Assembly: GCA_946059305.1 (NCBI GenBank)
Contig: CAMGMU010000004.1
Coordinates: forward strand, 1-56,686
Reading direction: 5' to 3'
DNA length: 56,686 nucleotides
From: an uncultured Bacteroidales bacterium
GTDB lineage: Bacteria > Bacteroidota > Bacteroidia > Bacteroidales > Paludibacteraceae
The first letter of the stretch is position 1; each line of letters starts with the position of its first letter. The notes below the pieces were generated by a model. That model worked only from the letters and a program-made list of their open reading frames with translations, ran no database searches and had not been told where the DNA came from. This document shows, piece after piece, positions 1,211 through 30,103 of the stretch. Made by a program: the position numbers and the translations under genes.

Positions 1211-2650
1211 TTAGAGATTGGTTTCGCGGAGTGAGAAATCCGAACTGCCATCAAAGCAATGCGTACACAATTCGCATTTAGGCAAACCGATAGCCTCCAC
1301 GAGGTCCTCCAATCGGGTGAAGCGGAGCGAACTGAGTCCGAAGCGCTTTTGGATAGCCTCCACCATTCTCAGATACTCCGGCGAATCGGTCTTGCTATAC
1401 GCTTTCAGACGTTCCGGATCGTTGGCAGCATCCATTCCCTCAAACTCCGCAATCAATCGGCGCGTCAGCAACTCCATCTCAGACTTGGAGGAGGTGAAAT
1501 TAATAAACGGGCAGCCGTAGAGCAATGGTGGGCTGGCAATACGCATGTGCACCTCTTTCGCTCCGGCTTCAAACAGGCATTTGGTATTGTCGCGAAGTTG
1601 GGTACCACGAACAATGGAATCATCGCAGAACAACACGCGTTTATCGCGAAGAACGGCTCCATTATGAATCAACTTCATCTTGGCTACCAGTTCGCGAAGT
1701 TCCTGCTTGGAAGGGGTGAAGGAGCGCGGCCAAGTAGGGGTATATTTGGAAATAGCACGACGATACGGCACTCCGTGGCCCGAAGCATAGCCGATAGCCA
1801 TACCAATACCGCTATCCGGAATACCGCAAGCGCAGTCCACTTCGGTGGTATCGATGCGTCCCATAGCCTCACCACAGGCATTGCGCACTTCCTCCGTATT
1901 GCGATTCTCGTAATCGGAAGTGGGGAAGCCGTAATACACCCATAAGAATGAGCATATTTGCTTACGCGGACTGGGTTTACGGAGCTGCTCCATATAGCTG
2001 GCCGTGATGCGAACAATCTCACCAGGACCTACAAAATATTCGGTCTCAAAACCCAAATTCTGAAACGCGGATGATTCAGATGCCACAGCATACGCATCGT
2101 CTCTTCGTCCGACTACAATGGGCGTTCTGCCCCAACTGTCGCGAGCAGCGATGATACCATCTTCGGTAAGCACCAAGATGCTGCATGAGCCCTTTACAAG
2201 GCGATAGACGTTTTCTATACCATCTACAAACGTTTTGCCTTTCACTATCAGCAAACCTACCAATTCCGTAGGATTGATGCGTCCGGAGCTGAATTCCGAC
2301 AAGTGCATATTCTCCTGCAGAAGGTGCTCTACAAGTTCTTCTGCATTGAGAATCTTCCCAACCGTAGAAACCGCAAAACGTCCTAAATGCGAATTAAAGA
2401 GCAGCGGTTGTGCATCGGTATCGGAGATGATACCTATACCGGCATTACCCGAAAAATCATCGAGCTCGTCTTCGAACTTCGTTCGGAAGGGTGAATGCTG
2501 AATGGAGTGAATCACCCGGCGAAAACCATTCTCCTCCGAAAACGTAGCCATACCAGCACGACGAGTGCCAAGATGGCTATGGTAGTCCGTGCCGTAAAAA
2601 ACATCTGCTACACAAGAAGATTTACCTATTGAACCGAAAAATCCTGCCAT
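1211..2650 (-). CDS. purF: Amidophosphoribosyltransferase PurF with a degenerate glutaminase domain
   Basis: This 479-residue protein makes 5-phosphoribosylamine from PRPP, the first purine step. The phosphoribosyltransferase half looks intact: LFCDDSIVRGTQ (340-351) is the PRPP loop, and C233, C380, C459 and C462 align with the four Fe-S ligands of Bacillus-type PurF. The class II amidotransferase half is not intact. Active PurF starts Met-Cys-Gly after processing; here it starts MAGFFGSIG, so Ala replaces the nucleophile. The usual RGxDxAG is LGTRRAG, the GHxRYST region is GIISDTD, and the HNG oxyanion motif is STVG. I infer that it uses free ammonia or a separate glutaminase. Similar Cys-lacking PurF proteins occur in Bacteroides. 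It is the last gene of the cluster, 21 bases after purC. Confidence 0.9.
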   Translation of the reverse strand: MAGFFGSIGKSSCVADVFYGTDYHSHLGTRRAGMATFSEENGFRRVIHSIQHSPFRTKFEDELDDFSGNAGIGIISDTDAQPLLFNSHLGRFAVSTVGKILNAEELVEHLLQENMHLSEFSSGRINPTELVGLLIVKGKTFVDGIENVYRLVKGSCSILVLTEDGIIAARDSWGRTPIVVGRRDDAYAVASESSAFQNLGFETEYFVGPGEIVRITASYMEQLRKPSPRKQICSFLWVYYGFPTSDYENRNTEEVRNACGEAMGRIDTTEVDCACGIPDSGIGMAIGYASGHGVPYRRAISKYTPTWPRSFTPSKQELRELVAKMKLIHNGAVLRDKRVLFCDDSIVRGTQLRDNTKCLFEAGAKEVHMRIASPPLLYGCPFINFTSSKSEMELLTRRLIAEFEGMDAANDPERLKAYSKTDSPEYLRMVEAIQKRFGLSSLRFTRLEDLVEAIGLPKCELCTHCFDGSSDFSLRETNL

Positions 2651-2671
2651 ATTATATCCAACAACCCGTCT

Positions 2672-3619
2672 TTATTTGGTGAGATAATCGGTTACGTTCT
2701 TCTCAATGCGAGCAGCCAAGTCATCCGTTTCTTGCGAGAGGTCAATCTTTTCGCCGGTAATACCCTCATACAACTCCTCATAACGAGCGGTGATTCCACT
2801 GACAACGGCATCCGTCATTTCCGGCACTTGCTGTCCGTCTTTTCCCTGGAAGCCATTCTCCATCAACCATTCGCGCACAAACTCCTTAGACAACTGCTTT
2901 TGCGGCTCGCCAGCAAGGAAACGCTCCTCATAGCCTTCTTTATAGAAATAACGGCTGGAGTCAGGCGTATGCACCTCGTCCATAAGCATAATCTGACCAT
3001 TGTAATTGCCAAACTCATATTTGGTATCCACAAGAATCAACCCCTGCTCTGCCGCAATCTGCTGACCACGCTCAAAGAGCGCCAATGCGTATTTCTCAAT
3101 CTGCGCATACTCATCAGCAGGCACAAGACCGCGTGCGATAATCTCTTCGCGAGAGATATCCTCGTCGTGCGTACCAATCTCTGCTTTGGTAGTAGGCGTA
3201 AGGATGGGCGTGGGGAATTTCTCATTCTCACGCATGCCATCGGGCAACCGTACACCGCAGATCTCGCGCACACCATTCTTATAGGCTCGCCATGCGCTAC
3301 CGCAGAGGTAACCGCGTACAATCATCTCTACAGGATAGCCCTTGCAGCAACGGCCAACCGACACCATCGGATCGGGAGTAGCCACCAGCCAATTCGGCAC
3401 GATATCCTCCGTCTGGCGAAGGAACTTAGCTGCAATCTGATTGAGAATCTGTCCCTTAAAGGGAATACCCTTGGGGAGAATCACATCAAAGGCAGAGATA
3501 CGATCCGTAGCGACCATTACGAGCAGATCGTTCTCCAAAAAATACACATCACGGACTTTGCCGTTGTACACCCCAGTCTGACCGGGGAAATGGAAGTTGG
3601 TAGAAGTAAGAGCTTTCAT
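2672..3619 (-). CDS. purC: Phosphoribosylaminoimidazole-succinocarboxamide synthase (SAICAR synthetase)
   Basis: This 315-residue enzyme joins CAIR and aspartate with ATP to form SAICAR, the eighth purine step, in the cytosol. The sequence shows the family pattern: [21 protein letters not shown] near residue 20 (glycine-rich ATP site), [25 protein letters not shown], and a C-terminal LVDTKYEFG. The length matches the roughly 315-residue Bacteroidales and yeast-like form rather than the 240-residue E. coli form. The start is the ATG at 3619; no strong Shine-Dalgarno is seen. The gene follows a 146-base structured gap and is 21 bases before purF, so these two may form a sub-unit with their own post-transcriptional control. 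Confidence 0.95.
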
Positions 3620-3629
3620 ACAAACTGTT

Positions 3630-3754
3630 AAGGTGGGATATAAAAATTCCCACTAAAAAAATTATTCATTATTGTGGGTAAACAGCTAATTTTTAGAACC
3701 CACCTTAATTATAATATTATGAAGGGATTATCCCCCATTGTGGGGGATTTTCCC
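3630..3754 (-). promoter_or_regulatory. Structured leader between carB and purC with mutually exclusive hairpins
   Basis: This is the largest gap in the purine half of the cluster. In transcript order there is first a hairpin, AUCCCCC-ACAAU-GGGGGAU (3748-3730), inside an outer GGG/CCC pair. Four short segments follow: AAGGUGGG (3706-3699), CCCAC (3678-3674), GUGGG (3653-3649) and CCCACCUU (3637-3630). Segments 1+4 pair perfectly and enclose 2+3; alternatively 1 pairs with 2 and 3 with 4. The purC ATG is 11 bases past segment 4. Such switching is typical of attenuators or translational controls. No consensus internal promoter is visible. Ligand and function are unknown. Confidence 0.5.
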
Positions 3755-3765: not shown

Positions 3766-6700
3766 TTAATACTCATCCCATGCGGTGATATCGAGCGACT
3801 CAAGCGGAATGGTACAGAATGCGTTGACGAATGCTGCTGCCAATCGCGGATTGGTAATCAGCGGAATATTGAGGTCGATGGAAGCACGCCGAACGCGATA
3901 GCCATTGTGCTTCTCATCCGTAACAATGTCTCTCGGGATGCTGATTACGAGATCAATCTCTTTATTATGGAGCATATCGAGCGCCATGGGAATATCCAAA
4001 CTTTCGGGCCTTTCTTCTGCCAACTCAGAGGGCAACCATACGCGTGTGTTCTCCACACCCGAATCGCTGAGGAACTTGGACGTTCCGCGAGTAGCATATA
4101 CTTTATAGCCCTTATTTACAAGCTGACGAGCCGCATTGAGCAGCATGGTCTTATGCTTGGGGTCACCAGCAGAAATGAGTACGTTATGTTCAGGAACGCG
4201 TTGTCCTACGGAGAGCATCGACTTGAGCAGTGCGCTGTTGGCATCCTCGCCAAGGCAACCCACCTCACCCGTAGAAGCCATATCCACACCTAAGCGAGGA
4301 TCGGTATTCTGCAAACGGTTGAAGCTGAACTGAGATGCTTTTACGCCTACATAATCGAAGTCAAAGCACGACTTCGAAGGTTTCTCTACCGGTAAGCCAA
4401 GCATGATGCGAGTGGCTATATCAATGAGATTGATTTTCAGCACTTTGCTTACAAATGGGAACGAACGCGATGCGCGAAGATTGCATTCAATCACCTTAAT
4501 TTCATTATCGCGCGCGAGGAACTGGATATTAAACGGACCCGAAATCTTCAGTTCGCGAGCAATCTGACCGGAAATCTTCTTAATACGTCGAACCGTTTCC
4601 ACATAGAGTTTCTGAGCCGGGAACATAATCGTAGCGTCACCAGAGTGCACACCTGCAAACTCCACGTGCTCCGAAATAGCATACGCTATAATCTCACCAT
4701 TGCGGGCTACTGCATCCATCTCCACTTCCTTGGTGTTTAGCATGAATTTGCTAACCACCACAGGGTGCTTCTGGCTTACATTGGCTGCAAGCGAGAGGAA
4801 GCGATTTAGTTCCTCATCGTTAGAGCATACGTTCATTGCTGCACCTGACAATACGTAGGACGGACGCACCAGCACAGGATAGCCCACTTTCTCTACAAAA
4901 GTATGAATATCTTCGAGTGAAGTAAGTGCGCTCCATTCCGGCTGATCCACTCCTATTCTATCGAGCATTGCCGAGAACTTATCGCGATCTTCTGCATTGT
5001 CAATAGACTGAGCGGTAGTACCTAAAATAGGCATGTGCTGCTGATCCAGTTTCAGCGCCAGATTATTGGGAATCTGACCACCTGTGCTGACGATAACGCC
5101 ATGCGGATTCTCCAATTCGAGGATATCCATCACGCGCTCAAAGGTAAGCTCGTCGAAATACAGGCGATCACACATATCATAGTCAGTAGATACCGTCTCA
5201 GGGTTGTAATTGATCATTACCGAGCGGAATCCGTTTTCTCGAATGGTATTGAGCGCTTGTACGCCGCACCAGTCAAACTCTACAGACGAGCCGATGCGAT
5301 ATGCACCCGAACCCAATACAACGATAGAGCGTTTATCACCCTTATAATCAACATCTCCGCTCACGCCGGAATACGTAAGATACAGATAGTTCGTAAGCGC
5401 AGGATACTCAGCTGCAAGCGTATCAATCTGCTTCACAACCGGAAGCACACCAAGCCATTTGCGGTATTGGCGCACTTGCAGTACGGCCTCATCTGCATCC
5501 ATACCCTCAGCCATCAAGCCAGTAGCACGAGCTATCTGGAAATCAGAGAAGCCCTGACGTTTGGCCTTACGCATCAAGTCAGCATCCACATTATTGAGTC
5601 CGCCTACACGCGTTAACTCTTTTTCTGTAATAAAGATATCCTCCAACTTCTGCAAGAACCACAAGTCAATCTTGGTGAGCTCGTGGATTCGTTCGATGCT
5701 GTAGCCCTGCTTGAGCGCCTCTGCTACTACGAAAACACGCTTATCCGTAGGTGCTGCAAGCGAGCGGTCGATATCCTCTATTTGGAGCGCCTTATTGGCT
5801 GCAAAACCATGCATACCCTGCCCTATCATGCGCAAGCCCTTCTGAATGGCTTCTTCAAACGTGCGACCTATAGCCATCACTTCGCCTACGGACTTCATCG
5901 AAGAACCAAGCTCGCGATCCACGCCTCTGAACTTATTCAGGTCCCAGCGCGGAATCTTACATACCACATAATCGAGCGCCGGCTCAAAGAAAGCCGAGGT
6001 GGTTTTGGTAACCGAGTTATTCAGTTCGAAAAGACCATATCCCATGCCGAGTTTGGCTGCTACGAAGGCCAACGGATAGCCCGTAGCCTTGGAAGCCAAG
6101 GCAGAAGAACGCGAGAGACGAGCATTCACCTCAATCACGCGATAATCCTCCGATTCGGGGTCAAAGGCGTATTGCACATTACACTCGCCCACAATACCAA
6201 TATGACGAATGATCTTGATGGCCAACGCACGAAGTTTATGATATTCAGAGTTGGTCAGCGTCTGCGAAGGAGCAATCACTATCGACTCACCGGTATGGAT
6301 GCCAAGCGGATCGAAATTCTCCATGTTGCAGACGGTGATGCAATTATCGTATCGGTCTCTAACTACCTCATACTCAATCTCTTTCCATCCCTTCAAGCTC
6401 TTCTCTACAAGCACCTGAGGAGAGAAAGAGAAAGCTTTTTCTGCCAAACGATTAAGCTGTTCTTCATTGTCGCAGAAGCCAGAACCTAATCCTCCAAGCG
6501 CATAAGCGGCTCGCAAAATAACGGGATAGCCCAATCGAGCAGCCGCTTCACGAGCTGCCTCTATCGTTTCGCAAGCTTCTGATTTGATGGTTTTTACATC
6601 AATCTCATTGAGTCGTTCTACAAACAATTCACGGTCTTCCGTATCGATAATCGCTTGGATAGGCGTACCGAGAACCTGCACTCCATATTTCTCCAGGATT

Positions 6701-7014
6701 CCCTCTTTATAAAGCTCCACACCGCAGTTGAGGGCCGTTTGGCCACCAAACGATAGGAGAATGCCATCGGGTTGCTCTTTCTGAATCACCTTCTCTACGA
6801 AATAGGGCGATACGGGGAGGAAGTAGATCTTATCGGCTACACCCTCAGAGGTCTGAACGGTAGCAATATTGGGGTTGATAAGCACCGTGCTGACACCTTC
6901 CTCGCGAAGCGCTTTGAGTGCTTGACTGCCGGAATAGTCAAATTCGCCGGCTTCGCCAATTTTCAGCGCTCCGGAACCTAATACCAGGACTTTATGTATG
7001 TTTTCTATTTTCAT
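3766..7014 (-). CDS. carB: Carbamoyl-phosphate synthase large subunit
   Basis: A 1082-residue, full-length enzyme. It makes carbamoyl phosphate from bicarbonate, two ATP and ammonia delivered by CarA, feeding pyrimidines and arginine. Two homologous ATP-grasp halves are visible. The first starts KVLVLGSGALKIGEAGEFDYSG and the second, near residue 560, SIVVLGSGAYRIGSSVEFDW. Metal-binding ends such as IEVNARLSRSSALASKATGYP and VIECNLRASRSFPFVSKV are present. The C-terminal 140 residues form the MGS-like allosteric domain (UMP/ornithine in other species). It starts 49 bases after carA. Its position within purine genes, far from the other pyr genes, is unusual. Confidence 0.97.
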   Translation of the reverse strand: MKIENIHKVLVLGSGALKIGEAGEFDYSGSQALKALREEGVSTVLINPNIATVQTSEGVADKIYFLPVSPYFVEKVIQKEQPDGILLSFGGQTALNCGVELYKEGILEKYGVQVLGTPIQAIIDTEDRELFVERLNEIDVKTIKSEACETIEAAREAAARLGYPVILRAAYALGGLGSGFCDNEEQLNRLAEKAFSFSPQVLVEKSLKGWKEIEYEVVRDRYDNCITVCNMENFDPLGIHTGESIVIAPSQTLTNSEYHKLRALAIKIIRHIGIVGECNVQYAFDPESEDYRVIEVNARLSRSSALASKATGYPLAFVAAKLGMGYGLFELNNSVTKTTSAFFEPALDYVVCKIPRWDLNKFRGVDRELGSSMKSVGEVMAIGRTFEEAIQKGLRMIGQGMHGFAANKALQIEDIDRSLAAPTDKRVFVVAEALKQGYSIERIHELTKIDLWFLQKLEDIFITEKELTRVGGLNNVDADLMRKAKRQGFSDFQIARATGLMAEGMDADEAVLQVRQYRKWLGVLPVVKQIDTLAAEYPALTNYLYLTYSGVSGDVDYKGDKRSIVVLGSGAYRIGSSVEFDWCGVQALNTIRENGFRSVMINYNPETVSTDYDMCDRLYFDELTFERVMDILELENPHGVIVSTGGQIPNNLALKLDQQHMPILGTTAQSIDNAEDRDKFSAMLDRIGVDQPEWSALTSLEDIHTFVEKVGYPVLVRPSYVLSGAAMNVCSNDEELNRFLSLAANVSQKHPVVVSKFMLNTKEVEMDAVARNGEIIAYAISEHVEFAGVHSGDATIMFPAQKLYVETVRRIKKISGQIARELKISGPFNIQFLARDNEIKVIECNLRASRSFPFVSKVLKINLIDIATRIMLGLPVEKPSKSCFDFDYVGVKASQFSFNRLQNTDPRLGVDMASTGEVGCLGEDANSALLKSMLSVGQRVPEHNVLISAGDPKHKTMLLNAARQLVNKGYKVYATRGTSKFLSDSGVENTRVWLPSELAEERPESLDIPMALDMLHNKEIDLVISIPRDIVTDEKHNGYRVRRASIDLNIPLITNPRLAAAFVNAFCTIPLESLDITAWDEY

Positions 7015-7063: not shown

Positions 7064-8179
7064 TTACTTAAGAAGGGCTATGAAGTCATCAAAGAGAAAC
7101 TCGGTATCAACCGGACCTGCGCAAGCTTCAGGATGGAACTGTGCGGAGAACCATGGTTTGGACGTGTGGCGAATACCCTCATTGGAGCCATCGTTCATGT
7201 TTACGAAATACGGTTCCCAACCGGGCATCAGTGTCTCCGTATCAACGGCATAACCATGGTTTTGCGTAGTAATAAAACAACGCTCCGTACCAACCATTCT
7301 TACAGGCTGATTATGGCTTCGATGGCCGTATTTGAGTTTATATACGGTAGCGCCTGCCGCCTTGCCCAAGAGCTGATTACCCATGCAGATACCCATAAGC
7401 GGTCGGCTCTCTTGCTTCGGCATCTCCGCCTCAATAAACTTACGGATATGCTGCACAGCAATATCGCAAGTATTCGGATCACCAGGGCCGTTAGAAAGGA
7501 AAAGACCATCAAATTCGAGTTGATTAAAGTCATAATCCCAAGGCACACGAATCACCTCTACTCCGCGGCGAACAAGGCAACGAATAATATTGTGCTTTAC
7601 GCCACAATCGAGCAAGACCACTTTCTTGGGATTCTCCAGACCTTCCTGCCGATAGGTGATTACTTCTTTACAAGAAACCTCATCCACGAAGTTGACACCT
7701 TCATAGGTAGCTTCCGGCAAATTGTCAGGTTCGTCATCAAAAATAATCTGCCCCATCATTACACCATGTTCGCGCAAACATTTCGTGAGGGCACGAGTGT
7801 CTATTCCCGTGATGCCGGGAATATGCTCTCTTTTCAACCATTCGGCAAGACTCTCATGAGCGTTCCAATGGCTGTATCGTTCGCTATAATCGCTCACAAT
7901 AATGGCAGATGCATAAATACGGTCAGACTCCATAAAGGTTGCCAAGCCATCGGCTTCCATCGAAAAAGCCGGTACACCATAATTGCCGACAAGCGGATAC
8001 GTAAGAGCCATCAACTGGCCAGCATACGAAGGATCGGTAAGACTCTCGGGATAGCCCATCATGGCTGTATTAAACACCACCTCACCCGCTACAGGTTGCT
8101 CGTAGCCAAATGAAGTACCATGAAAACAGGTTCCATCCGATAGACGCAATGTTACTTTTCGCATAGATAGTTGAGTCAT
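7064..8179 (-). CDS. carA: Carbamoyl-phosphate synthase small subunit (glutaminase)
   Basis: A 371-residue partner of CarB that hydrolyses glutamine and channels ammonia. The N-terminal small-chain domain (GEVVFNTAMMGYPESLTDPS) spans roughly 1-150. The class I amidotransferase domain covers about 185-371 and holds C265 in GICMGNQ, with H349 and E351 in FHPE. The residue after C-x-G is Asn where most CarA have His (GHQ), but the catalytic triad is present. ATG codons at 8179 and 8164 (MRKVTLRL) are both possible; the second gives the more typical N-terminus. Unlike PurF in the same cluster, this glutaminase looks functional. Confidence 0.96.
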   Translation of the reverse strand: MTQLSMRKVTLRLSDGTCFHGTSFGYEQPVAGEVVFNTAMMGYPESLTDPSYAGQLMALTYPLVGNYGVPAFSMEADGLATFMESDRIYASAIIVSDYSERYSHWNAHESLAEWLKREHIPGITGIDTRALTKCLREHGVMMGQIIFDDEPDNLPEATYEGVNFVDEVSCKEVITYRQEGLENPKKVVLLDCGVKHNIIRCLVRRGVEVIRVPWDYDFNQLEFDGLFLSNGPGDPNTCDIAVQHIRKFIEAEMPKQESRPLMGICMGNQLLGKAAGATVYKLKYGHRSHNQPVRMVGTERCFITTQNHGYAVDTETLMPGWEPYFVNMNDGSNEGIRHTSKPWFSAQFHPEACAGPVDTEFLFDDFIALLK

Positions 8180-8197: not shown

Positions 8198-9499
8198 TTA
8201 ATTTCGGAGAATGGTTGCATCGCGATCAGGACCTACTGACACAATCTTGATAGGAGTCTGAAGCTCTTTTTCAAGGAAGGCAATATAGTCTTTAAATGCT
8301 TTTGGGAAATCGGCTTCAGAGCGGCAACCTGTAAGGTCACAGTTCCAACCGGGGAGCTCTACATACTGAGGCTCAACTTCGCCCTCAAGGCTGAAGGGGA
8401 ATTCGCTGGTTAGCTCGCCGTTTACCTTATATGCAGTACATGCTTTGATGGTAGGGAAGGTATCCAGCACGTCGGATTTCATCATGATCAGTTGCGTTAC
8501 GCCATTCAGCATGATCGTATATTTGAGTGCAACCAAATCAATCCATCCGCAGCGGCGTTCACGACCGGTAACAGCACCATACTCATGGCCAATACGGCGA
8601 ATCTCGGCTCCCGTTTCGTCGAACAATTCGGTTGGGAACGGACCAGCGCCAACGCGCGTGCAATAGGCTTTGAAAATGCCAAACACCTCGCCAATCTTAT
8701 TAGGCGCAATACCCAACCCCGTACATGCTCCTGCGCACACGGTATTGGAAGAGGTCACGAAAGGATACGAACCGAAATCCACATCCAGCAATGAACCTTG
8801 CGCGCCCTCACACAAAATGGATTTATCTTCTTTCAGGCAATTATTTACGAAATGCTCTGAATCAATCACCCGGAACTGCTTAAGATACGCAGCACCTCGC
8901 ATCCATTCGGCTTCCAGCGCGTCTAATCCTTCGAGCGAAACAGCCTCACCACCCTTTTCTACGGCAAGACGATTCAAACCCTCAATCATTTCAATATGGC
9001 GAAGTTTGGCAGCTGCATATTTCTCTTCAAAACGATCAAACAAATCGCCTACTCGCAATCCATTACGGCTCACCTTATCGGTATAAGTAGGGCCGATGCC
9101 CTTACCGGTTGTGCCAATTTTTGCCTTACCTTTAGCGGCTTCATTCGCCTTATCAAGCAAACGATGAGTAGGTAAAATAAGGTGTGCTTTCTTGGAAATA
9201 AACAAGCGTTCCTTGAGGTTATGGCCGGACTTTGCCAATTCTTCAGCTTCGGTCATAAAAAGCAGCGGATCAAGCACTACGCCATTACCGATAATATTTA
9301 CCTTGTCGCCTTGAAAAATACCTGAAGGAATAGAGCGAAGCACATATTTCTCGCCGTTGAATTCCAGCGTATGACCCGCATTCGGTCCTCCCTGAAAACG
9401 AGCAACTACACTATAATTCGGAGTGAGGACATCTACGACCTTACCTTTACCTTCGTCGCCCCACTGCAATCCTAAAATGACATCTACTTTTTTCATCAT
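8198..9499 (-). CDS. purA: Adenylosuccinate synthetase
   Basis: A 433-residue enzyme that converts IMP and aspartate to adenylosuccinate with GTP, the first AMP-specific step. The N-terminal LGLQWGDEGKGKVVDVL is the GTP P-loop and catalytic Asp region. GPNAGHT supplies the catalytic His, GTTGKGIGPTYTDK the IMP site, and VGPDRDATI the C-terminal guanine-binding region. The length is normal. ATG ATG occurs at 9499-9494; either may be used. It is 33 bases downstream of purB, which catalyses the next step, and 18 bases upstream of carA. Confidence 0.97.
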   Translation of the reverse strand: MMKKVDVILGLQWGDEGKGKVVDVLTPNYSVVARFQGGPNAGHTLEFNGEKYVLRSIPSGIFQGDKVNIIGNGVVLDPLLFMTEAEELAKSGHNLKERLFISKKAHLILPTHRLLDKANEAAKGKAKIGTTGKGIGPTYTDKVSRNGLRVGDLFDRFEEKYAAAKLRHIEMIEGLNRLAVEKGGEAVSLEGLDALEAEWMRGAAYLKQFRVIDSEHFVNNCLKEDKSILCEGAQGSLLDVDFGSYPFVTSSNTVCAGACTGLGIAPNKIGEVFGIFKAYCTRVGAGPFPTELFDETGAEIRRIGHEYGAVTGRERRCGWIDLVALKYTIMLNGVTQLIMMKSDVLDTFPTIKACTAYKVNGELTSEFPFSLEGEVEPQYVELPGWNCDLTGCRSEADFPKAFKDYIAFLEKELQTPIKIVSVGPDRDATILRN

Positions 9500-9532: not shown

Positions 9533-10825
9533 TCAAATACCTACCTGATTGAAGATATAATCCACGTTCTTCATATAGTAATCGAGCGTGAAGCAATTGT
9601 CGATTTCTTCTGCAGTAAGATGTTCGGTTACCGCAGGGGTGCGTTTCAGATTCTCCTGCATCTCACCGCCTTCCATTAGCGTTTTCATAGCTACCGGCTG
9701 CACCAAATCATACGCTTGCTCACGCACGAAGCCCTTCTCAATAAGTGCATTCATTACGCGTTGTGCAAAGATAGCACCATGAGTGAGGCCGATGTTATGA
9801 AGCATATTTTCCGGATATACTACAAGGTTATCCAAAATACCCTCAAAACGCGCGAGCATATAATCAAGGAGCATCGTTGCATCCGGCAGAATAATACGTT
9901 CGGTTGACGAATGCGAGATATCGCGCTCATGCCAGAGAGCAATATTCTCATTGGCCGTGCACATATAACCGCGCATTACGCGAGCGCATCCGCAAATATT
10001 CTCTGAAGAAATAGGGTTACGCTTATGCGGCATGGCCGAGGAGCCCTTTTGCCCTTTGCGGAAAGCCTCCTCTACTTCTCTTACTTCCTGACGCTGCATA
10101 TTGCGCACTTCAAGAGCCATCTGCTCAAGCGTGCCGGCAATACAAGCGAGCGTAGAGAGATAGAATGCATGGCGGTCACGACCGAGTACTTGGGTTGCAA
10201 TCTTAGCCGATTCAATGCCAAGGTGCTCACATACATACGTTTGGATGGCAGGCGGGATATTGGCATAATTGCCTACTGCACCCGACAATTTACCGGCTTC
10301 CACTCCGCGAGCCGCCATCTCAAAGCGCTCGATATTGCGCGCCATAGCCTCATACCACAACGCCCATTTCAATCCAAAAGACGTTACATCAGCATGCATA
10401 CCATGCGTGCGTCCTATTACAGGTGTGTACTTAAACTCATTCGCACGGCGCTTCAGCACTTCCATAAAAGAAGCCAGGTCTTTGCGGAGAATAGCGTTGG
10501 CTTGCTTAAGAAGATAGCCATTCGCAGTATCTACTACATCGGTAGAGGTAAGGCCATAATGAACCCATTTCTTTTCTTCACCAAGCGATTCACTTACCGT
10601 ACGGGTAAATGCCACCACATCATGGCGAGTAATTTCTTCAATCTCATGGATGCGATCTACGTTGAACGTAGCTTTTTCGCGCAGAAGTTTTACGTCTTCT
10701 GCCGGTACCACACCCAGAGTGGACCAAGCTTCAGCAGCAAGAATCTCTACCTCCAAATAAGCATTGAACTTATTCTCCTCAGTCCAAATGTTGCGCATAA
10801 TTGCGCGGCTGTAACGATCGATCAT
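9533..10825 (-). CDS. purB: Adenylosuccinate lyase, short Bacillus-like form
   Basis: A 430-residue lyase that acts twice: SAICAR to AICAR, and adenylosuccinate to AMP. Family marks are TRHDVVAFTRTVSE, HYGLTSTDVVDTA, GRTHGMHADVTSFG and the flexible signature GSSAMPHKRNP around residue 263. The start MIDRYSRAIMRNIWTEENKF and the 430-residue length match the Bacillus/Thermotoga subtype. My recollection is that Bacteroides PurB is usually the E. coli-like form beginning with an SPIDGRY motif, so this copy may have been acquired from elsewhere; a tree would be needed. It is packed between purT and purA. Confidence 0.95.
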   Translation of the reverse strand: MIDRYSRAIMRNIWTEENKFNAYLEVEILAAEAWSTLGVVPAEDVKLLREKATFNVDRIHEIEEITRHDVVAFTRTVSESLGEEKKWVHYGLTSTDVVDTANGYLLKQANAILRKDLASFMEVLKRRANEFKYTPVIGRTHGMHADVTSFGLKWALWYEAMARNIERFEMAARGVEAGKLSGAVGNYANIPPAIQTYVCEHLGIESAKIATQVLGRDRHAFYLSTLACIAGTLEQMALEVRNMQRQEVREVEEAFRKGQKGSSAMPHKRNPISSENICGCARVMRGYMCTANENIALWHERDISHSSTERIILPDATMLLDYMLARFEGILDNLVVYPENMLHNIGLTHGAIFAQRVMNALIEKGFVREQAYDLVQPVAMKTLMEGGEMQENLKRTPAVTEHLTAEEIDNCFTLDYYMKNVDYIFNQVGI

Positions 10826-21325: not shown

Positions 21326-22936
21326 TTATTCCCACTCGATTGTGGCAGGTGGTTTGGAAGAAATATCGTAACAAACGCGATTAACACCCTTCACCTTATT
21401 AATAATATCATTGGAAACTTTAGCCATAAAGTCATACGGCAGATGTGCCCAATCGGCAGTCATAGCATCCGACGAAGTGACAGCCCGGAGCGCTACTGGA
21501 TTCTCATAGGTGCGCTCATCGCCCATCACGCCAACCGACCTTACTTCTGAGAGTAGGATAGCTCCCGCTTGCCAAATCTGATCGTAAAGGCTCACCTCTA
21601 TCTCGCCGTTTTGCATATCAGCAGGAACGCCAGCAGCCAAAACCGCACGCGCTTCTTCACCGCTCAAGCGCACCTTATATTCGCGCAAACCGCGGATGAA
21701 AATATCATCGGCATCTTGCAGCACGCGCACTTTCTCGCGGGTAATATCGCCAAGGATGCGCACAGCCAATCCCGGTCCAGGGAAAGGATGCCGCGTAATC
21801 AAATGCTCGGGCATACCCATCGAGCGTCCCACTCTGCGAACTTCGTCTTTAAATAGCCATTTCAATGGTTCGCAAAGCTGCAAGTGCATTTCTTCAGGCA
21901 GACCACCCACGTTGTGATGACTCTTTATCACCTTACCTGTGATATTGAGCGACTCTATTCGATCCGGATAAATCGTACCTTGCGCAAGCCACTTGGCATC
22001 GGTAATCTTGCGGGCTTCATCATTGAACACCTCTACAAAATCCCGGCCAATAATCTTGCGTTTTTTCTCCGGCTCAGTCACCCCGGCCAAATCCGAGAGG
22101 AAACGTTCGCTGGCATCTACGCCAATCACGTTCAGTCCGAGACATTCATAATCGCGCATCACATCTGCAAACTCATTCTTACGGAGCATACCATGATCAA
22201 CGAAAATGCAGGTGAGTTGCTCACCGATAGCCTTGTTGAGCAATACGGCTACCACCGACGAATCCACACCTCCGGAGAGGCCGAGAATTACGCGGTCTGA
22301 ACCAATCTGCTCGCGGAGCTCTCGTACGGTAGTCTCCACAAACGCATCTGCGCTCCACTCCTGCTTGCTGCCGCACACATCCACTACGAAATTTTTCAAG
22401 AGCAAGGTGCCCTGAAGCGAATGAAACACCTCCGGATGAAATTGCGTACCAAACACCGGCTTCTCACCGGGGATATAATATGCTGCATTCTCTACCGTCT
22501 CAGTAGAAGCTACCACATGTGCGCCTTCGGGAATACGCGTGATACTATCGCCATGCGACATCCATACCTGTGAATGGGCATCAAATCCCTTAAATAGCGG
22601 GCAGGTTGTATCAACATATGCCAGATTTTGACGTCCGTATTCGCGTGTGCCAGCACTTTCCACTTTGCCACCATAAATATGGCTCATATATTGCGCGCCA
22701 TAGCAGATGCCAAGGATAGGCAGCCGACCGCGGATCTTGCTCAAATCCACATGGAAAGCGTCGTCTGCATATACGCTCAGCGGCGAACCAGAGAGTATCA
22801 CACCAATCACATCGGAGTCGTCTTCGGGATATTTGTTGTATGGCAGGATTTCGCAAAACGTATCCAACTCACGTACACGACGGCCGATAAGCTGTGTGGT
22901 TTGCGATCCAAAATCCAAAATAATAATTTTCTGCAT
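21326..22936 (-). CDS. guaA: GMP synthase (glutamine-hydrolysing)
   Basis: A 536-residue enzyme that aminates XMP to GMP. The class I amidotransferase domain (1-190) has C78 in LGICYGAQ and H167/E169 in FHPE. The PP-loop SGGVDSS is at 221-227. The XMP-binding dimerisation domain ends in the expected [26 protein letters not shown] is present. The length is slightly above the usual 510-525, with extra residues in the synthetase region. The start is the ATG at 22936. It is paired with guaB, the previous step, across a 68-base gap that holds a GTGGG/CCCAC hairpin. Confidence 0.97.
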
Positions 22937-23004: not shown

Positions 23005-25559
<2,555 letters not shown>

Positions 25560-25563: not shown

Positions 25564-26199
25564 TTACTGCTTCATCCAACTTTCGTCGGAGGGGTTATTT
25601 CTAAACTGAATCAATCCTTTCTGTTGTGCTTCGGTGATGTAGCCTTCTTTTACAGCCACTTCGGAGAGCACGTCTAAGTTACTGAGGCTCACGTTCTTCA
25701 CCTTGGCTTCAGCCAAACGGTCGATCCCTTTCTGCATGCCGTAGGTAAAAATGGAAACAACGCCAAGTACATCCGCACCCGCTTCGCGGAGCACGTTCAC
25801 TACCTCGATGCAGCTGCCGGCAGTAGAAATCAAGTCTTCTACCACCACCACTTTCTGCCCTTTCTCCAAACGGCCTTCAATCTGATTTCCGCGACCATGA
25901 TCTTTCGCACCACTACGCACATAGCCCATCGGCAGATTGAGTTTGGTAGCGGTAATAGCTGCATGCGCGATACCGGCAGTAGAGGTGCCCATCAATACTT
26001 CAGCTTCGGGGTATTCTCTGCGAATGGTATCAGCAAGTCCATTTTCCACATCCTCGCGAACATTTACATCGCTCAACGTCAGTCGGTTGTCGCAATAAAT
26101 CGGGCTCTTGATTCCACTTGCCCACGTAAACGGCTCCTCCGGACGAAGGAACACCGCCTTGATCTTAAGCAGATCACTTGCTATTTTTTCTTCTATCAT
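25564..26199 (-). CDS. pyrE: Orotate phosphoribosyltransferase
   Basis: A 211-residue enzyme that makes OMP from orotate and PRPP. The PRPP loop [13 protein letters not shown] is near residues 118-130. [17 protein letters not shown] is the substrate loop, and [16 protein letters not shown] the flexible catalytic loop. I use the ATG at 26199 ([11 protein letters not shown]); an in-frame ATG seven codons upstream (26220) would add MGRAREN. That upstream segment forms a GGGC-AGA-GCCC hairpin and closely matches the start of pyrF, so which ATG is used is a real question. It lies 4 bases before pyrB. Confidence 0.95.
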
Positions 26200-26207
26200 A
26201 TTCTCTC

Positions 26208-26220
26208 GGGCTCTGCCCAT
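26208..26220 (-). promoter_or_regulatory. Start-proximal GC hairpin of pyrE, matching one at pyrF
   Basis: The minus strand reads ATG-GGC-AGA-GCC-CGA and then, after GAGAAT, the ATG of pyrE. GGGC and GCCC pair with a three-base loop, 8 bases before the chosen start. The same design occurs at pyrF (26972-26984). Both contain an in-frame ATG exactly seven codons upstream. Confidence 0.45.
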
Positions 26221-26267: not shown

Positions 26268-26963
26268 TTATTCAAACTCGCTGACACACCTGCGATAAGC
26301 AGCTACAGGGTCTTCAGCTGCGGTGATTGGGCGCCCCACCACGATATAATCCGAACCAATCTCTTTGGCTTTCTCGGGTGTGGTGATGCGTACCTGATCG
26401 CCAACTGCACCATCAGCAAAACGGATGCCAGGCGTAACACAGAAGAAATCCTTACCGCAGGCTTCTTTCACGATACCTGCTTCCAGCGGGCTGCACACTA
26501 CGCCATCCAAACCCGAATCTTTCGCGTTTTTCGCATAATGGCGCACGCAATCAGCTACCGTGCCGGGAATGAGCAAGTCACGGTTCATACGCTCCTCGCT
26601 CGTTGAAGTGAGTTGGGTGACAGCCAGCAGAATCGGTCGACTGCCATCCGCACGCGTGAGGCCCTCTAAAGCTGCCACCATCATCTCTTTCGTTCCGGCA
26701 GCATGCAGGTTGACCATATCCACATCCAAACGACTCAACACGGCCATTGCTTTCTTCACCGTATTGGGGATATCATGCAGTTTCAAGTCGAGGAAAATCT
26801 TATGTCCACGACGCTTCAACTCACGAACAATAGCCGGTCCTTCAGCATAAAAAAGTTCCATGCCTATTTTTACAAACGGTTTCTCTTCCGTAAATCGATC
26901 CAAGAATCGATACGTTTCTTCTGCGCTCGAAAAATCACACGCAATAATCACTTCTCTTTTCAT
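26268..26963 (-). CDS. pyrF: Orotidine 5'-phosphate decarboxylase
   Basis: A 231-residue barrel enzyme that converts OMP to UMP, the last step of this pathway. It shows [11 protein letters not shown] at the start, [13 protein letters not shown], the catalytic [11 protein letters not shown] near residue 60, [38 protein letters not shown] and [13 protein letters not shown]. The ATG at 26963 ([11 protein letters not shown]) fits the family; an ATG seven codons upstream (26984) would add MGMARKD. That stretch is similar in RNA and in peptide to the extension before pyrE. The upstream gap of about 135 bases to pyrD is non-coding, with small hairpins. Confidence 0.95.
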
Positions 26964-26971
26964 ATCTTTTC

Positions 26972-26984
26972 GGGCCATGCCCAT
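26972..26984 (-). promoter_or_regulatory. Start-proximal GC hairpin of pyrF, matching one at pyrE
   Basis: The minus strand reads ATG-GGC-ATG-GCC-CGA and then AAAGAT and the pyrF ATG. GGGC and GCCC pair around ATG, eight bases before the chosen start. The pattern ATGGGCAnnGCCCGAnA recurs at pyrE, so one copy probably arose from the other. Confidence 0.45.
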
Positions 26985-27119: not shown

Positions 27120-28025
27120 TTAATTCACCACTCCGATAATCTCGCTCAGGTGCTCTATCCGGTTGGCAGCCATCACGTCGGGCAACGCTTCGATAATGTC
27201 TTTGCAGATTGTCGGATTGATGAGATTGGCGGCTCCTATCTCCACAGCCGAAGCGCCTGCCATCATCATCTCCACCACATCTTCTGCAGAAGAAATACCG
27301 CCGCAACCGATGATGGGAAGCGAGGTTGCTCGCGCTACCTGATTCACCATCCGAAGCGCGATGGGGAAGATACCCGGGCCGCTGTAACCGCCATAGCGAT
27401 TGGCAATGATGGGTTGCCTACGACGGATGTCGATACGCATGCCGAGCATCGTATTGATTAAGCAAAGACCATCTGCTCCTGCCTCTTCACAAGCCTTCGC
27501 AATGCTGACGATATCCGTCACGTTCGGCGAAAGTTTCATGTAGATGGGCTTGCGTGTGGCTGCTTTTACGGCTCGCGTCACTTCGGCTGCCGCTTCGGGC
27601 GAAGTGCCAAAAGCCATACCACCGTTGTGCACATTCGGGCAACTGATATTCACCTCGATGATATCCACCTCCGGTGCTTGATCCATCAGCTGCGAAGTAA
27701 AGACATAATCATCGATTGAGAATCCGCTCACGTTGGCAATCACCACGCCCTTGTACAACTCACGAAGGCGAGGCAATTCATGCGCCACCACATGTTCCAC
27801 TCCGGGGTTTTGCAGTCCCACAGCATTGATCATGCCATAGCCACCACACTCTGCAATACGTGGCAGCGCATTGCCATAGCGCGCTTCGCGGGTGGTGCCC
27901 TTAAACGAGATGCCACCCAAGATATTCAAGTCATATACCTGAGCAAACTCCTCGCCGAAACCATACGTTCCCGAAGCCGGAATAACCGGATTCTTCAACT
28001 CAATATTTGATAATCTTGTTTTCAA
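27120..28025 (-). CDS. pyrD: Dihydroorotate dehydrogenase B, catalytic subunit
   Basis: A 301-residue FMN enzyme that oxidises dihydroorotate to orotate. It is class 1B because it pairs with PyrK and has a catalytic Cys in VNISCPNVHNGG (around residue 130) rather than the membrane-type Ser. Other marks are SGTYGFGEEFAQVYDL, GGISFKGTT, KLSPNVTDIVSIAKACEEAG and IIGCGGISSAEDVVEMMMAGASAVEIGAAN. The start codon is TTG at 28025-28023: a TAA lies three codons upstream in frame, no ATG occurs between, and the peptide from TTG (MKTRLSNIELKNP) is the normal family start. The rare codon may lower its translation relative to pyrK. Confidence 0.95.
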   Translation of the reverse strand: MKTRLSNIELKNPVIPASGTYGFGEEFAQVYDLNILGGISFKGTTREARYGNALPRIAECGGYGMINAVGLQNPGVEHVVAHELPRLRELYKGVVIANVSGFSIDDYVFTSQLMDQAPEVDIIEVNISCPNVHNGGMAFGTSPEAAAEVTRAVKAATRKPIYMKLSPNVTDIVSIAKACEEAGADGLCLINTMLGMRIDIRRRQPIIANRYGGYSGPGIFPIALRMVNQVARATSLPIIGCGGISSAEDVVEMMMAGASAVEIGAANLINPTICKDIIEALPDVMAANRIEHLSEIIGVVN

Positions 28026-28092: not shown

Positions 28093-28842
28093 TCAGAGCT
28101 TCAGCTCGCTCGCTTTAAACACCGGCCCATCTTTGCAAACGCGCTTCGGGCCGTTGACGGTTTGAATAGAGCACCCCATGCAAGCACCGAAACCGCATCC
28201 CATCCGCTCTTCCATACTGAGTTCGCCATCGTGACTGACAGCCTTAGCGAGGGCACGGAGCATCGGAAGCGGGCCGCAAGCGTAGTAATACGAAGAGTAA
28301 GCAGGGAGGGCGTTGGTTACAAACCCTTTCGTGCCATACGAACCATCCACCGTGGTGACGCTCACCTCGCAGCCAAGTGCACGGAAATCCTCCTCGCTAA
28401 ACACCTCCGATTGCGTATTGAAACCTAACACCACATTTACGTCCTTTCCTTGCTCACGAAGCTGCTTCGCCAACATATACATGGGCGGCACACCTACCCC
28501 ACCGCCTACGAGCAACGGATGGTCGCCCGCGAGAGAGAGGTCGTAGCCATTGCCCAAATGCGTGAGCACATCGAGCTGCATCCCAGCTTGCATCGCTGCC
28601 ATCGCAGCTGTACCTTTACCCACCACCTTATAAATAATAATAAGGAGTCGGTCATAGGCATCGCAAACGGATATCGGACGACGCAAAAACAGCCCCGGCA
28701 ACTGTAACTCCACGAATTGGCCCGGACGAATACCGCTTACTGCAGCCGCATCGCCTTCGAGCGTCATCCGCCACACTTCTGCCGTGAGGGGCTCGTTTCG
28801 TAATATCGTAAACTGCGTTTGTTTCATTTTCTGCAAATCCAT
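28093..28842 (-). CDS. pyrK: Dihydroorotate dehydrogenase B, electron transfer subunit
   Basis: A 249-residue FAD/[2Fe-2S] protein that passes electrons from PyrD to NAD. The FAD site RRPISVCDAYDRLLIIIYKVVGKGT, the NAD site LVGGGVGVPPMYMLAKQL, and the C-terminal cluster motif C-x4-C-x2-C-x11-C in MGCGFGACMGCSIQ...VCKDGP are all visible. The start at 28842 (MDLQKMKQTQFTI) leaves 19 bases after pyrC; the longer frame from 28884 would overlap pyrC and adds atypical residues. A further ATG at 28827 is possible. It lies immediately upstream of pyrD, as in Bacillus. Confidence 0.94.
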   Translation of the reverse strand: MDLQKMKQTQFTILRNEPLTAEVWRMTLEGDAAAVSGIRPGQFVELQLPGLFLRRPISVCDAYDRLLIIIYKVVGKGTAAMAAMQAGMQLDVLTHLGNGYDLSLAGDHPLLVGGGVGVPPMYMLAKQLREQGKDVNVVLGFNTQSEVFSEEDFRALGCEVSVTTVDGSYGTKGFVTNALPAYSSYYYACGPLPMLRALAKAVSHDGELSMEERMGCGFGACMGCSIQTVNGPKRVCKDGPVFKASELKL

Positions 28843-28861
28843 TGTCAATATCGCCCATTCA

Positions 28862-29953
28862 TCAATCCCAAACCGGCTGTCCATACACTTCCCAACCAGC
28901 GAAGGGGGTTGCCTTACCGAGGCTGATAAACTGAGCAGGGTCGATGATATAATGCTTATCGAGGTTCATCTTCACGAACGACTGCGGCTCGCCCATACGC
29001 ATGATGCGGCGAGGAGCCAAACTCATCAGTTCAATCAAACGCTCCATCGAGATGATATTCTTCTTCACGAAATAGGTGTACATCAGCGGGAAAGCGGTCT
29101 CAAGGCCCACGATTCCGAAGGCGCTCTTGGCGAGCCCTCGACTCTTCTCTTCAGCCGAATGCGGAGCATGGTCAGTAGCTATCGCGTCAATCGTGCCATC
29201 GATGATGCCCTCTATGAGCGCATCGCGGTCGGCTGCTGCCCGCAAAGGCGGGTTCATCTTCCAGCATCCGTCTTCGCGGAGGTCCATATCGGTGAGCAAG
29301 AGATAATGCGGCCCCGTCTCACACGTCACGGGCAATCCCGCGCGTTTGACTTCACGGATAAGCTGCACACTTTCCTTAGTGGAAATATGGCAGATATGAA
29401 AACGACACCCAGTCTCTTTGACAAGACGGATGTCGCGTTCTATCTCCTTCCATTCGCTCTCAGAGCAGATACCTTTGTGCTGATGCTCGAGAGCGTATTG
29501 ACCCTCGTGGATGTAGCCGCCGCGGAGCAACGAATCCACCTCACAATGAGCCACGATAATGCGGTCTACGGCCTTGCAACGCACCATAGCCTCGCGCATC
29601 AAGTCCTCTGACTGCACGCCACGGCCATCGTCAGAGAAGCCTGCCACATACGGAGCCAATGCCTCGAAATCCACAAGCTCGCCGGCACCACGTTGGCCAT
29701 GCGTGATGGCAGCATAGGGGTGCACACCTATCACGGCATCACGAGCTATGATATCCGTCTGCACTTTCAAATTCTCCAAACAATCGGGAACGGGATTAAG
29801 GTTAGGCATGGTAAAAACGTCAGAATACCCTGCCGCACGTGCTGCCATAGAGCCCGTACGAATCGTTTCTTTATACGAAAAACCCGGTTCGCGGAAGTGA
29901 ACATGCAAGTCCACCATTGCCGGAATCGTTACCACACCATCTTTTTGCATCAT
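28862..29953 (-). CDS. pyrC: Dihydroorotase, class I, without the N-terminal beta domain
   Basis: A 363-residue amidohydrolase that cyclises carbamoyl aspartate to dihydroorotate. The metal motif DLHVHFREPG is at 15-24, the bridging Asp lies in GFSDDGRG (106-112), and ligand His residues lie in AHCE (135-138) and CHIST (188-192). The catalytic ATDHAPH is at 259-265. Most class I enzymes (about 420-440 residues) have some 50 residues of beta-sandwich before the first His; here only about 14 remain. An in-frame TAA two codons before the ATG rules out an upstream start. It is the first gene of the cluster, with a leader of about 113 bases and a hairpin 7 bases before its ATG. Confidence 0.94.
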   Translation of the reverse strand: MMQKDGVVTIPAMVDLHVHFREPGFSYKETIRTGSMAARAAGYSDVFTMPNLNPVPDCLENLKVQTDIIARDAVIGVHPYAAITHGQRGAGELVDFEALAPYVAGFSDDGRGVQSEDLMREAMVRCKAVDRIIVAHCEVDSLLRGGYIHEGQYALEHQHKGICSESEWKEIERDIRLVKETGCRFHICHISTKESVQLIREVKRAGLPVTCETGPHYLLLTDMDLREDGCWKMNPPLRAAADRDALIEGIIDGTIDAIATDHAPHSAEEKSRGLAKSAFGIVGLETAFPLMYTYFVKKNIISMERLIELMSLAPRRIMRMGEPQSFVKMNLDKHYIIDPAQFISLGKATPFAGWEVYGQPVWD

Positions 29954-29959
29954 ACCTTA

Positions 29960-29978
29960 GCCTCTTTAGGGGAGAGGC
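29960..29978 (-). promoter_or_regulatory. Hairpin just upstream of the pyrC start
   Basis: On the minus strand GCCTCT (29978-29973) pairs perfectly with AGAGGC (29965-29960), with a seven-base loop CCCCTAA. The ATG begins 7 bases after the stem, so folding would cover the ribosome landing area of the first gene in the cluster. This could couple pyrC translation to RNA structure; no regulator is evident. Confidence 0.45.
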
Positions 29979-30072
29979 AGCCCTTTTACCTGTTTACAGA
30001 GTGAGGTTCTCCTGAAAAATGCCGTTTTCTGCTACATAAGTCAAAAAACAGCCCTTTCTCCGAAATTTTCTG

Positions 30073-30103
30073 CAAAGGTAGTACTTTTTTTTGAATTAGA
30101 CAA
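30073..30103 (-). promoter_or_regulatory. Main promoter of the nucleotide biosynthesis cluster
   Basis: The minus strand has TTG (30103-30101), then 20 bases, then TACCTTTG (30080-30073), an exact fit to the Bacteroidales consensus. The spacer carries an A8 tract. Over 34 bases it differs at only four positions from the tRNA-Glu promoter at 31750-31780. Transcription should start near 30066. No other consensus promoter was found in the gaps between pyrC and purF, so this one may drive all 21 genes. Confidence 0.8.

What the first reader, a model, noticed from the sequence alone, without database searches (positions are those of the whole stretch)
1211..30103. Complete de novo purine and pyrimidine synthesis in one 28.7-kb, 21-gene co-directional cluster
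All enzymes for UMP (CarAB, PyrB, C, DK, E, F) and for IMP, AMP and GMP (PurF, D, T, L, M, E, C, B, H, A, GuaB, GuaA), plus FolD for the formyl donor, are contiguous on one strand with gaps of 4-156 bases. I see one promoter matching the Bacteroidales consensus at the head and one strong terminator at the tail. In well-known bacteria these genes form two or more operons or are scattered. Joining both pathways would impose one transcriptional switch on all ribonucleotide supply.
Basis: partly seen in the sequence, partly recalled or inferred. Interest (0 to 1): 0.82.

Follow-up and report, generated by a model that had tools for sequence, protein, structure and literature searches.

The report
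All-in-one nucleotide-making gene cluster
An uncultured gut bacterium carries nearly all genes for making RNA building blocks in one unbroken 21-gene row, some close relatives keep the same row while many seem to lack purine synthesis, and its enzyme that starts purine synthesis looks built to use free ammonia instead of glutamine.

Summary
Confirmed: 21 same-strand genes (29953 to 1211) encode pyrCKDFEB, guaBA, purELMHD, folD, purT, purBA, carAB, purC and purF. One exact Bacteroidota-type promoter lies at the head, none inside, and a terminator hairpin at the tail. Three congeners have all 21 genes in the same order; a similar promoter precedes pyrC in 8 relatives. Looser pyr+pur clusters occur in Rikenellaceae, Muribaculaceae and Clostridia. 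PurL is found in only 22 of 61 genomes of the genus, so the cluster seems to mark prototrophs; some congeners have it split.

'Complete' needs correcting. PurF lacks the catalytic cysteine and other glutaminase residues but keeps PRPP and Fe-S residues. This form is in 48 of 149 genomes of the order and is the only PurF-like hit besides GlmS-like ones in seven PurL-positive congeners, but the window's own genome also has a Cys-bearing one. PurK: 0 of 61. PyrB carries a fused PyrI zinc domain.

Best reading: one operon, kept or lost largely as a unit, with an ammonia-using PurF. Transcription and activity untested.

The parts
30073..30104 (-). head promoter, TTTG-N20-TACCTTTG
   Evidence: only exact match in the cluster region; 0.13 expected; similar sites upstream of pyrC in 8 relatives
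28862..29953 (-). pyrC, dihydroorotase
   Evidence: TIGR00857, 335 bits, over cut-off
28093..28884 (-). pyrK, dihydroorotate dehydrogenase electron transfer subunit
   Evidence: NF000799, 223.6 bits, under cut-off 314
27120..28025 (-). pyrD, class 1 dihydroorotate dehydrogenase
26268..26984 (-). pyrF, OMP decarboxylase
25564..26220 (-). pyrE, orotate phosphoribosyltransferase
24507..25559 (-). pyrB, aspartate carbamoyltransferase with C-terminal PyrI-type zinc domain (residues 317-349)
23005..24471 (-). guaB, IMP dehydrogenase
21326..22936 (-). guaA, GMP synthase
   Evidence: GATase Cys and HPE motif present
20795..21262 (-). purE; no PurK found in the genome
17041..20907 (-). purL, large single-chain FGAM synthase; true start may lie downstream of the first ATG
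   Evidence: TIGR01857, 1748 bits, match from residue 52
15921..16988 (-). purM
14286..15821 (-). purH
12977..14227 (-). purD
12077..12928 (-). folD
10862..12064 (-). purT, formate-dependent GAR formyltransferase
9533..10825 (-). purB
8198..9499 (-). purA
7064..8179 (-). carA; GATase Cys and HPE motif present
3766..7014 (-). carB
2672..3619 (-). purC
1211..2650 (-). purF, Cys-less form: starts MAGFFG, glutaminase residues lost, PRPP motif and four Fe-S-type cysteines kept
1041..1086 (-). tail terminator hairpin with U-run
1001..1031 (-). promoter consensus just past the terminator, for the next gene (197-898)
   Evidence: read by eye; one search counted 3 exact matches on the minus strand of the whole window and printed only the one at 30104

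Best explanation
The 21 genes form one operon for de novo UMP, IMP, AMP and GMP, read from one promoter upstream of pyrC and ended after purF. Within its genus it is kept or lost largely as a unit and so separates nucleotide prototrophs from apparent auxotrophs. Its last gene encodes a PRPP amidotransferase in an ammonia-dependent form: the PRPP-using half is intact and the glutamine-splitting half has become a non-catalytic domain. With no PurK and a formate-using PurT, the purine branch draws on free ammonia, CO2 and formate. The ATCase keeps only the zinc domain of the regulatory chain and so should lack CTP/ATP allostery. Shown: gene content and order, conservation, promoter and terminator signals, residue losses, co-occurrence with PurL. 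Inferred: one transcript, ammonia use, loss of allostery, prototrophy and auxotrophy. Separate confidence: single operon 0.8; kept or lost as a unit 0.65; ammonia-dependent PurF 0.6; non-allosteric ATCase 0.65.
For: Order: 21 of 21 genes in G268, G297 and G291; 20 in G307; 19 in G312. pyrB-guaB-guaA-purE-purL in a row in 11 of the 20 PurL-positive congeners fetched, of 22. A site with 0 or 1 mismatch and spacer 20 upstream of pyrC in the window and in 8 of 9 relatives tried, the ninth unusable; 1 exact match inside about 190 kb of cluster sequence, partly read in most relatives. Junctions of -1 or 2 bases, measured between tblastn match ends, recur in relatives. PurL in 22 of 61 genus genomes, 14 of 27 high-quality. 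PurL with/without Cys-less PurF 16/6, no PurL 2/37; PurL with/without PurT 19/3, no PurL 1/38. PurF: of 240 listed proteins of two searches, queries included, 239 have A or G after Met, 1 is truncated, none has C; of 33 distinct locus proteins at 40% identity or more, the window's included, none has C, of 8 below 40% 7 have C. DDSIVRGT and four cysteines kept in 32 of 32; best fold match is B. subtilis PurF. A review states that E. coli PurF without this cysteine still uses ammonia (PMC3261824, section 6 read). The Cys-less form, judged by score and frame length, is the only hit besides GlmS-like ones in PurL-positive G265, G276, G289, G291, G297, G307 and G320. PurK 0 of 61. Zinc cysteines invariant in 11 of 11 fused PyrB; no other PyrI_C in the genome.
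Against: No transcript or enzyme data. The window's own genome has a second PurF-like protein, 599 aa, with the cysteine; four more of the 16 genomes with PurL and Cys-less PurF have a hit of that score and length (G268, G270, G286, G294), and relatives of it sit between purA and carA in G311 and G313, so it may be the glutamine-using PurF. Of the six PurL-positive genomes without the Cys-less form, four have a long-type hit, G277 a weak one and G303 none besides a GlmS-like one; G301 (partial gene) and G305 have the Cys-less form but no PurL. 95 of 149 genomes of the order have neither the Cys-less nor the canonical form; what they use was not worked out. G277, G303 and G313 have the pur part with no pyr genes upstream of guaB in what was read; G265, G302, G316 and G320 have parts split or interrupted. 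Sigma-70-type promoter matches do lie in some interior gaps, for example at 3765-3727 before purC; their number over both strands is 23 against 21.9 and 24 against 18.2 expected. PurH needs a folate formyl donor (recalled) and CarA, GuaA and PurL keep glutaminase motifs. The genus genomes are 54-100% complete, so absences are not certain.
Confidence: 0.6

Rival explanations
1. The Cys-less PurF is not the PRPP amidotransferase by itself but a regulatory or partner subunit of a Cys-bearing paralogue, such as the 599-aa protein on contig C38, which hydrolyses glutamine.
For: Own genome has the paralogue; four other congeners have both types; relatives of the paralogue lie in the cluster in G311 and G313; the dead domain is well conserved; crenarchaeal PurF' coexists with PurF.
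Against: Seven PurL-positive congeners, five of them at least 90% complete, show only the Cys-less form besides GlmS-like hits at E <= 1e-8. In Clostridia L186, L192 and L213 the Cys-less gene follows purE, and in L186 purM follows it.
Confidence: 0.25
2. The cluster is several overlapping transcription units with internal promoters that do not match the consensus; its order is kept by shared inheritance or transfer, not by joint regulation.
For: Interior gaps of up to 146 bases could hold promoters, and sigma-70-type matches occur in some; some congeners have only the pur part or scattered parts.
Against: One exact Bacteroidota-type promoter, at the head; interior matches at chance level; very short junctions in relatives.
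Confidence: 0.2
3. Ordinary clustering: usual pur and pyr operons placed side by side, with nothing special in the enzymes.
For: All genes are known families; joint pyr+pur clusters with Cys-bearing PurF exist in Rikenellaceae MAGs.
Against: Same 21-gene order in several species; PurF below the family cut-off and without its nucleophile; PyrB fusion; no PurK found.
Confidence: 0.1

Closest known systems
Canonical PurF, glutamine PRPP amidotransferase (B. subtilis type, PDB 1ao0, 1gph)
   Same: Fold (TM 0.76/0.80), PRPP motif, pyrophosphate loop, four cysteines aligned with those of Cys-bearing PurF
   Different: Cys1 replaced by Ala; Arg, Asn and Asp of the glutaminase site (roles recalled) replaced by Ser, Val and Pro; 186 bits against cut-off 350; loop reads KYTPTW-x-RSF
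PurF' of Crenarchaeota (PMC3261824, section 6 read)
   Same: PurF-like protein without the N-terminal cysteine, near other purine genes; ammonia use proposed there, untested
   Different: There each genome also has a Cys-bearing PurF; here seven PurL-positive congeners show only the Cys-less form. Sequence relationship of the two not tested
ATCase with PyrB and PyrI, separate or fused as in T. maritima (PMC4581275, passages seen)
   Same: Catalytic chain plus PyrI-type zinc domain
   Different: Zinc domain joined directly to the catalytic chain; about 50 residues follow it, and Pfam finds no allosteric domain
Separate pur and pyr operons of model bacteria (recalled)
   Same: Same enzymes, operon organisation
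   Different: Both pathways plus AMP and GMP branches in one row
Joint pyr+pur clusters in Alistipes, Tidjanibacter, Muribaculaceae and Clostridia MAGs
   Same: pyr genes running on into purE, purL, purM, purH on the same strand; the nine Bacteroidota ones have the PyrB-zinc fusion
   Different: Other order: carAB, where seen, between pyrC and pyrK or before pyrC; no guaBA or purBA seen in the Bacteroidota flanks; PurF has Cys in six Rikenellaceae ones, is Cys-less in three Clostridia ones

Membership tests
Canonical PurF (TIGR01134) | N-terminal nucleophilic cysteine | tested here: not met
   MAGFFG start; A, G or S in the relatives checked
Canonical PurF (TIGR01134) | score over the curated cut-off (350 bits) | tested here: not met
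   186 bits
Canonical PurF (TIGR01134) | PRPP-binding motif and PurF fold | tested here: met
   DDSIVRGT; PDB match 1ao0, E 1.4e-37
Canonical PurF (TIGR01134) | glutamine-dependent PRPP amidotransferase activity | not testable with these tools
   needs an enzyme assay
PurF' (Cys-less PurF of Crenarchaeota) | PurF-like, no N-terminal Cys, linked to purine genes | tested here: met
   definition
PurF' (Cys-less PurF of Crenarchaeota) | accompanied by a Cys-bearing PurF | tested here: inconclusive
   599-aa paralogue in the own genome; no such hit in seven PurL-positive congeners
PurF' (Cys-less PurF of Crenarchaeota) | same protein clade | not tested
   no archaeal sequence was aligned
ATCase of the PyrB+PyrI kind | PyrI zinc domain with four cysteines | tested here: met
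   PF02748 at 317-349; cysteines invariant in 11 of 11
ATCase of the PyrB+PyrI kind | allosteric nucleotide-binding domain of PyrI | tested here: not met
   Pfam finds none in the protein and the genome's only PyrI_C is the fused one; the PyrI N-domain was not searched for by itself
Single operon | same strand, short gaps, one promoter, one terminator | tested here: met
   by consensus matches only
Single operon | one transcript | not testable with these tools
   no RNA data
Complete de novo IMP pathway | PurK, or a PurE that does without it | tested here: inconclusive
   PurK over cut-off in 0 of 61; PurE has the SAHR motif of the PurK-dependent class (motif recalled; sequence); high CO2 may substitute (PMC3261824, passages)

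The most novel reading that the evidence does not exclude
Gut Bacteroidota and Clostridia contain a widespread second kind of PurF that has given up glutamine and aminates PRPP with free ammonia. In this lineage it sits in a single-promoter nucleotide operon whose purine branch is fed by free ammonia, CO2 and formate, and whose presence decides whether a species can make its own nucleotides at all.
Probability: 0.45. Interest if true: 0.75.

Novelty: new variant of a known kind. Interest (0 to 1): 0.55.

Why it matters
If right, one genetic unit decides nucleotide self-sufficiency in a group of gut bacteria, a simple marker of prototrophs and auxotrophs in metagenomes. The Cys-less PurF would mean that the committed step of purine synthesis in many gut anaerobes depends on environmental ammonia rather than glutamine, tying nucleotide supply to gut nitrogen chemistry. 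It also makes the untested proposal of an ammonia-dependent PurF (PMC3261824) directly testable in bacteria.

Tried and rejected
Chance co-orientation: rejected, all 21 genes recur in order in three congeners. Known leader RNA: Rfam lists only one tRNA in the window. The leader folds moderately better than shuffles (z -2.1, 8 of 200 as good). Internal terminators: the scan sites on the coding strand lie inside genes. Foreign origin by base composition: GC 0.46-0.52 over the window, no contrast at the cluster. Fixed chromosomal site: no ORF of 120 aa or more beside the window's cluster matched one beside the relatives' clusters at the limits (E 1e-25, 40% identity, 60% coverage), but the stretch downstream of G310's cluster was not in that comparison, and there two genes similar to window 39789-41498 lie near its purL (53% and 39%). 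General gene-order decay was not measured, so movement of the block is not shown. PurN: not searched for. PyrB tree (67 rows): 42 fused and 3 unfused Bacteroidota rows form one group (100/98); of the three unfused L112 is cut by a contig end, L172 and L179 are about 300 aa; L047 (unfused, G120) and the three fused Bacillota rows lie elsewhere. The first filter for PurF N-termini caught 20 of 30 loci and was replaced; one of its eight rows under 40% identity (L157) shows M where C is expected, perhaps a wrong start. G020, the only other genome of 149 with PyrB and GuaA within 30 kb, has none of the other cluster genes between them at the limits.

Literature: searches listed nothing I could recognise as describing a joint purine-pyrimidine operon, a Cys-less PurF in bacteria, or PyrB fused to the PyrI zinc domain alone. 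I saw listings with titles and abstract starts; of PMC4581275 passages, of PMC3261824 passages and section 6. Only open-licence papers are held.
Full report
What is there. Window 1211-29953 holds 21 genes, all on the minus strand, identified by NCBIfam and Pfam. In order of reading: pyrC, pyrK, pyrD, pyrF, pyrE, pyrB, guaB, guaA, purE, purL, purM, purH, purD, folD, purT, purB, purA, carA, carB, purC, purF. Of 20 junctions 18 have gaps of 4-146 bases and two overlap if first ATGs are used. Nineteen of 21 proteins pass the cut-off of at least one model; pyrK and purF do not (purF 186 against 350 bits). The genome is 2.18 Mb in 97 contigs, 95% complete. A PurF 99% identical to the window's comes from a MAG named Paludibacteraceae bacterium, so the family is probably Paludibacteraceae.

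One unit. The Bacteroidota promoter form used here (TTTG, 18-21 bases, TANNTTTG) is recalled. On the coding strand its only exact match in the cluster region is at 30104, 151 bases before pyrC; 0.13 were expected. With at most one mismatch there are 6, five of them interior, where 5.1 were expected. Of nine relatives tried one (G278) was unusable. Three (G268, G307, G297) have an exact match upstream of pyrC and five (G312, G291, G311, G270, G265) a one-mismatch match; the spacer is 20 in all eight, and the distance 81-82 bases in six. Interior exact matches: 1 in about 190 kb, the window included. After purF comes a hairpin with eight T and then, read by eye, another exact promoter before the next gene. 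In relatives many junctions are -1 or 2 bases between tblastn match ends, stop codons not counted. Against this, sigma-70-type matches lie in some interior gaps, with totals at or slightly above chance.

Conservation. Of 61 genomes of the genus 22 have PurL; of high-quality ones 14 of 27. I fetched 20 of these 22 loci. pyrB-guaB-guaA-purE-purL stand in a row in 11 (L248, L250-L258, L262). Whole order: 21 of 21 in G268, G297 and G291, 20 in G307 (no purT), 19 in G312 (no folD, purT). G311 keeps the order but has a long PurF between purA and carA and no Cys-less purF beside purC. G277, G303 and G313 have the pur part without pyr genes upstream of guaB in what was read. G265, G302, G316 and G320, close to the window by PurL identity (75-76%), have the genes split or interrupted. 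PyrB: of eight genomes of the genus listed in the family search 2 have it. The pathway is thus patchy in the genus, and the cluster can break up. A named public example is L154 (MAG RUG14221), with the same order up to purD, where the locus ends, but only a partial pyrC hit and no pyrE hit. In the order, PyrB and GuaA lie within 30 kb on one contig in 2 of 149 genomes, G000 and G020 (my reading of the lists; contig breaks may hide others). Outside the genus, purE or purL runs co-directionally with pyrB in 15 of the 80 named loci kept: nine Rikenellaceae or Muribaculaceae MAGs and six Clostridia or other Bacillota MAGs; many flanks are cut by contig ends.

PurF. The protein begins MAGFFG. In the alignment with B. 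subtilis PurF (1ao0) its residue 3 meets residue 2, so Ala2 stands where the nucleophilic Cys1 is. The glutaminase Arg, Asn and Asp (roles recalled) become Ser, Val and Pro, and an eight-residue loop is missing (MAFFT alignment agrees). DDSIVRGT and the cysteines at 233, 380, 462 and 465 are kept in all 32 Cys-less rows of A2, and in A3 in the three Cys-bearing rows too, which suggests an Fe-S cluster as in B. subtilis (recalled). The model (mean pLDDT 85.9) matches B. subtilis PurF best. Of 33 distinct proteins at 40% identity or more in fetched loci none has Cys (24 G, 7 S, 2 A); of 8 less similar ones 7 have Cys. Of the 240 proteins listed by two searches, queries included, 118 have A, 121 have G and one is truncated. 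In 149 genomes of the order 48 have this form and 8 a PurF over the family cut-off, two of them both; 95 have neither, and their PurF was not worked out. In the genus 0 of 61 have a PurF over the cut-off. Eighteen have the Cys-less form, judged by score and frame length, 16 of them with PurL. In seven PurL-positive genomes it is the only hit besides GlmS-like ones, five of these at least 90% complete. Against this, the window's own genome and four others (G268, G270, G286, G294) also have a long type, in the own genome 599 aa with the cysteine. CarA, GuaA and PurL keep their glutaminase motifs, so the loss is specific to PurF. A review (PMC3261824, section 6) reports that E. coli PurF without the cysteine still uses ammonia and proposes ammonia use for a Cys-less archaeal PurF'. 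Hence my reading of an ammonia-using PurF; the rival is a pair with a Cys-bearing paralogue.

Other donors. PurK: none over cut-off in 61 genomes; 20 have hits under the cut-off, and the ten whose coordinates I could compare with mapped clusters are PurT. The same review discusses doing without PurK at high CO2 (passages). PurT occurs in 19 of 22 PurL-positive genomes. PurN was not searched for. PurH and FolD imply that folate-bound formyl is still used.

PyrB. The 350-aa protein ends in a PyrI-type zinc domain with CX4C and CX2C, all four cysteines invariant in 11 of 11 fused rows. It is the only PyrI_C in the genome. The model (mean pLDDT 84.4) matches ATCase catalytic chains over about 300 residues. 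In the order 138 of 149 genomes have PyrI_C; by open-frame length only G000 and G113 have it fused to PyrB. In the family 20 of 120 genomes have full-length PyrB matches of 61% identity or more, and 19 of these show the zinc motif, the last (L112) being cut by a contig end. Fused forms also occur in Alistipes, Tidjanibacter and Muribaculaceae MAGs and in Negativibacillus massiliensis. The short tail leaves no room for the allosteric domain, so feedback by CTP is probably lost; untested.

Verdict. 'Complete' and 'ordinary enzymes' are not accurate, and the order is shared within the genus rather than unique. The most testable consequence is the ammonia-using PurF. Everything about transcription, enzyme activity and auxotrophy is inference.

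Noticed in passing
window 30184-30474: Four tandem copies of a 57-59 base unit, each with a near-perfect palindrome GGTGTGCGTGGGACGCACACC, just upstream of the head promoter; no exact copy of the palindrome in 315 other loci.
   Followed up: partly
window 30618-30676: Perfect 24-base inverted repeat with 11 bases between the arms, made of CATCTAGCTTA units.
   Followed up: no
L003 1156-2955 (G000 contig C38): 599-aa PurF-like protein with a Cys-bearing glutaminase start (HECGIA); relatives of it sit inside the cluster in G311 and G313.
   Followed up: partly
window 28862-29953: PyrC seems to lack about 30 N-terminal residues compared with the family model (match begins at model position 31); loci L133 and L153 align from its residue 1.
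   Followed up: no
L245 5467-19493 (G302): A 14-kb run of seven same-strand ORFs (176 to 1337 aa) lies between purL and purM in this congener.
   Followed up: no
P0105: 661-aa metagenomic relative of PurF in which the phosphoribosyltransferase part is repeated; may be an assembly artefact.
   Followed up: no
PurF residues 302-311 (alignments A2, A3): KYTPTW-x-RSF stands where the Cys-bearing forms have KNKY-x-GRTF; KYTPTW is in 239 of 240 listed Cys-less proteins and could serve as a marker.
   Followed up: partly
L308 3962, L262 731 (G310 contig C44): Two genes similar to window 39789-41498 (53% and 39%) lie on the far side of purL in this congener, the only flank genes of the window seen near a relative's cluster.
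   Followed up: no
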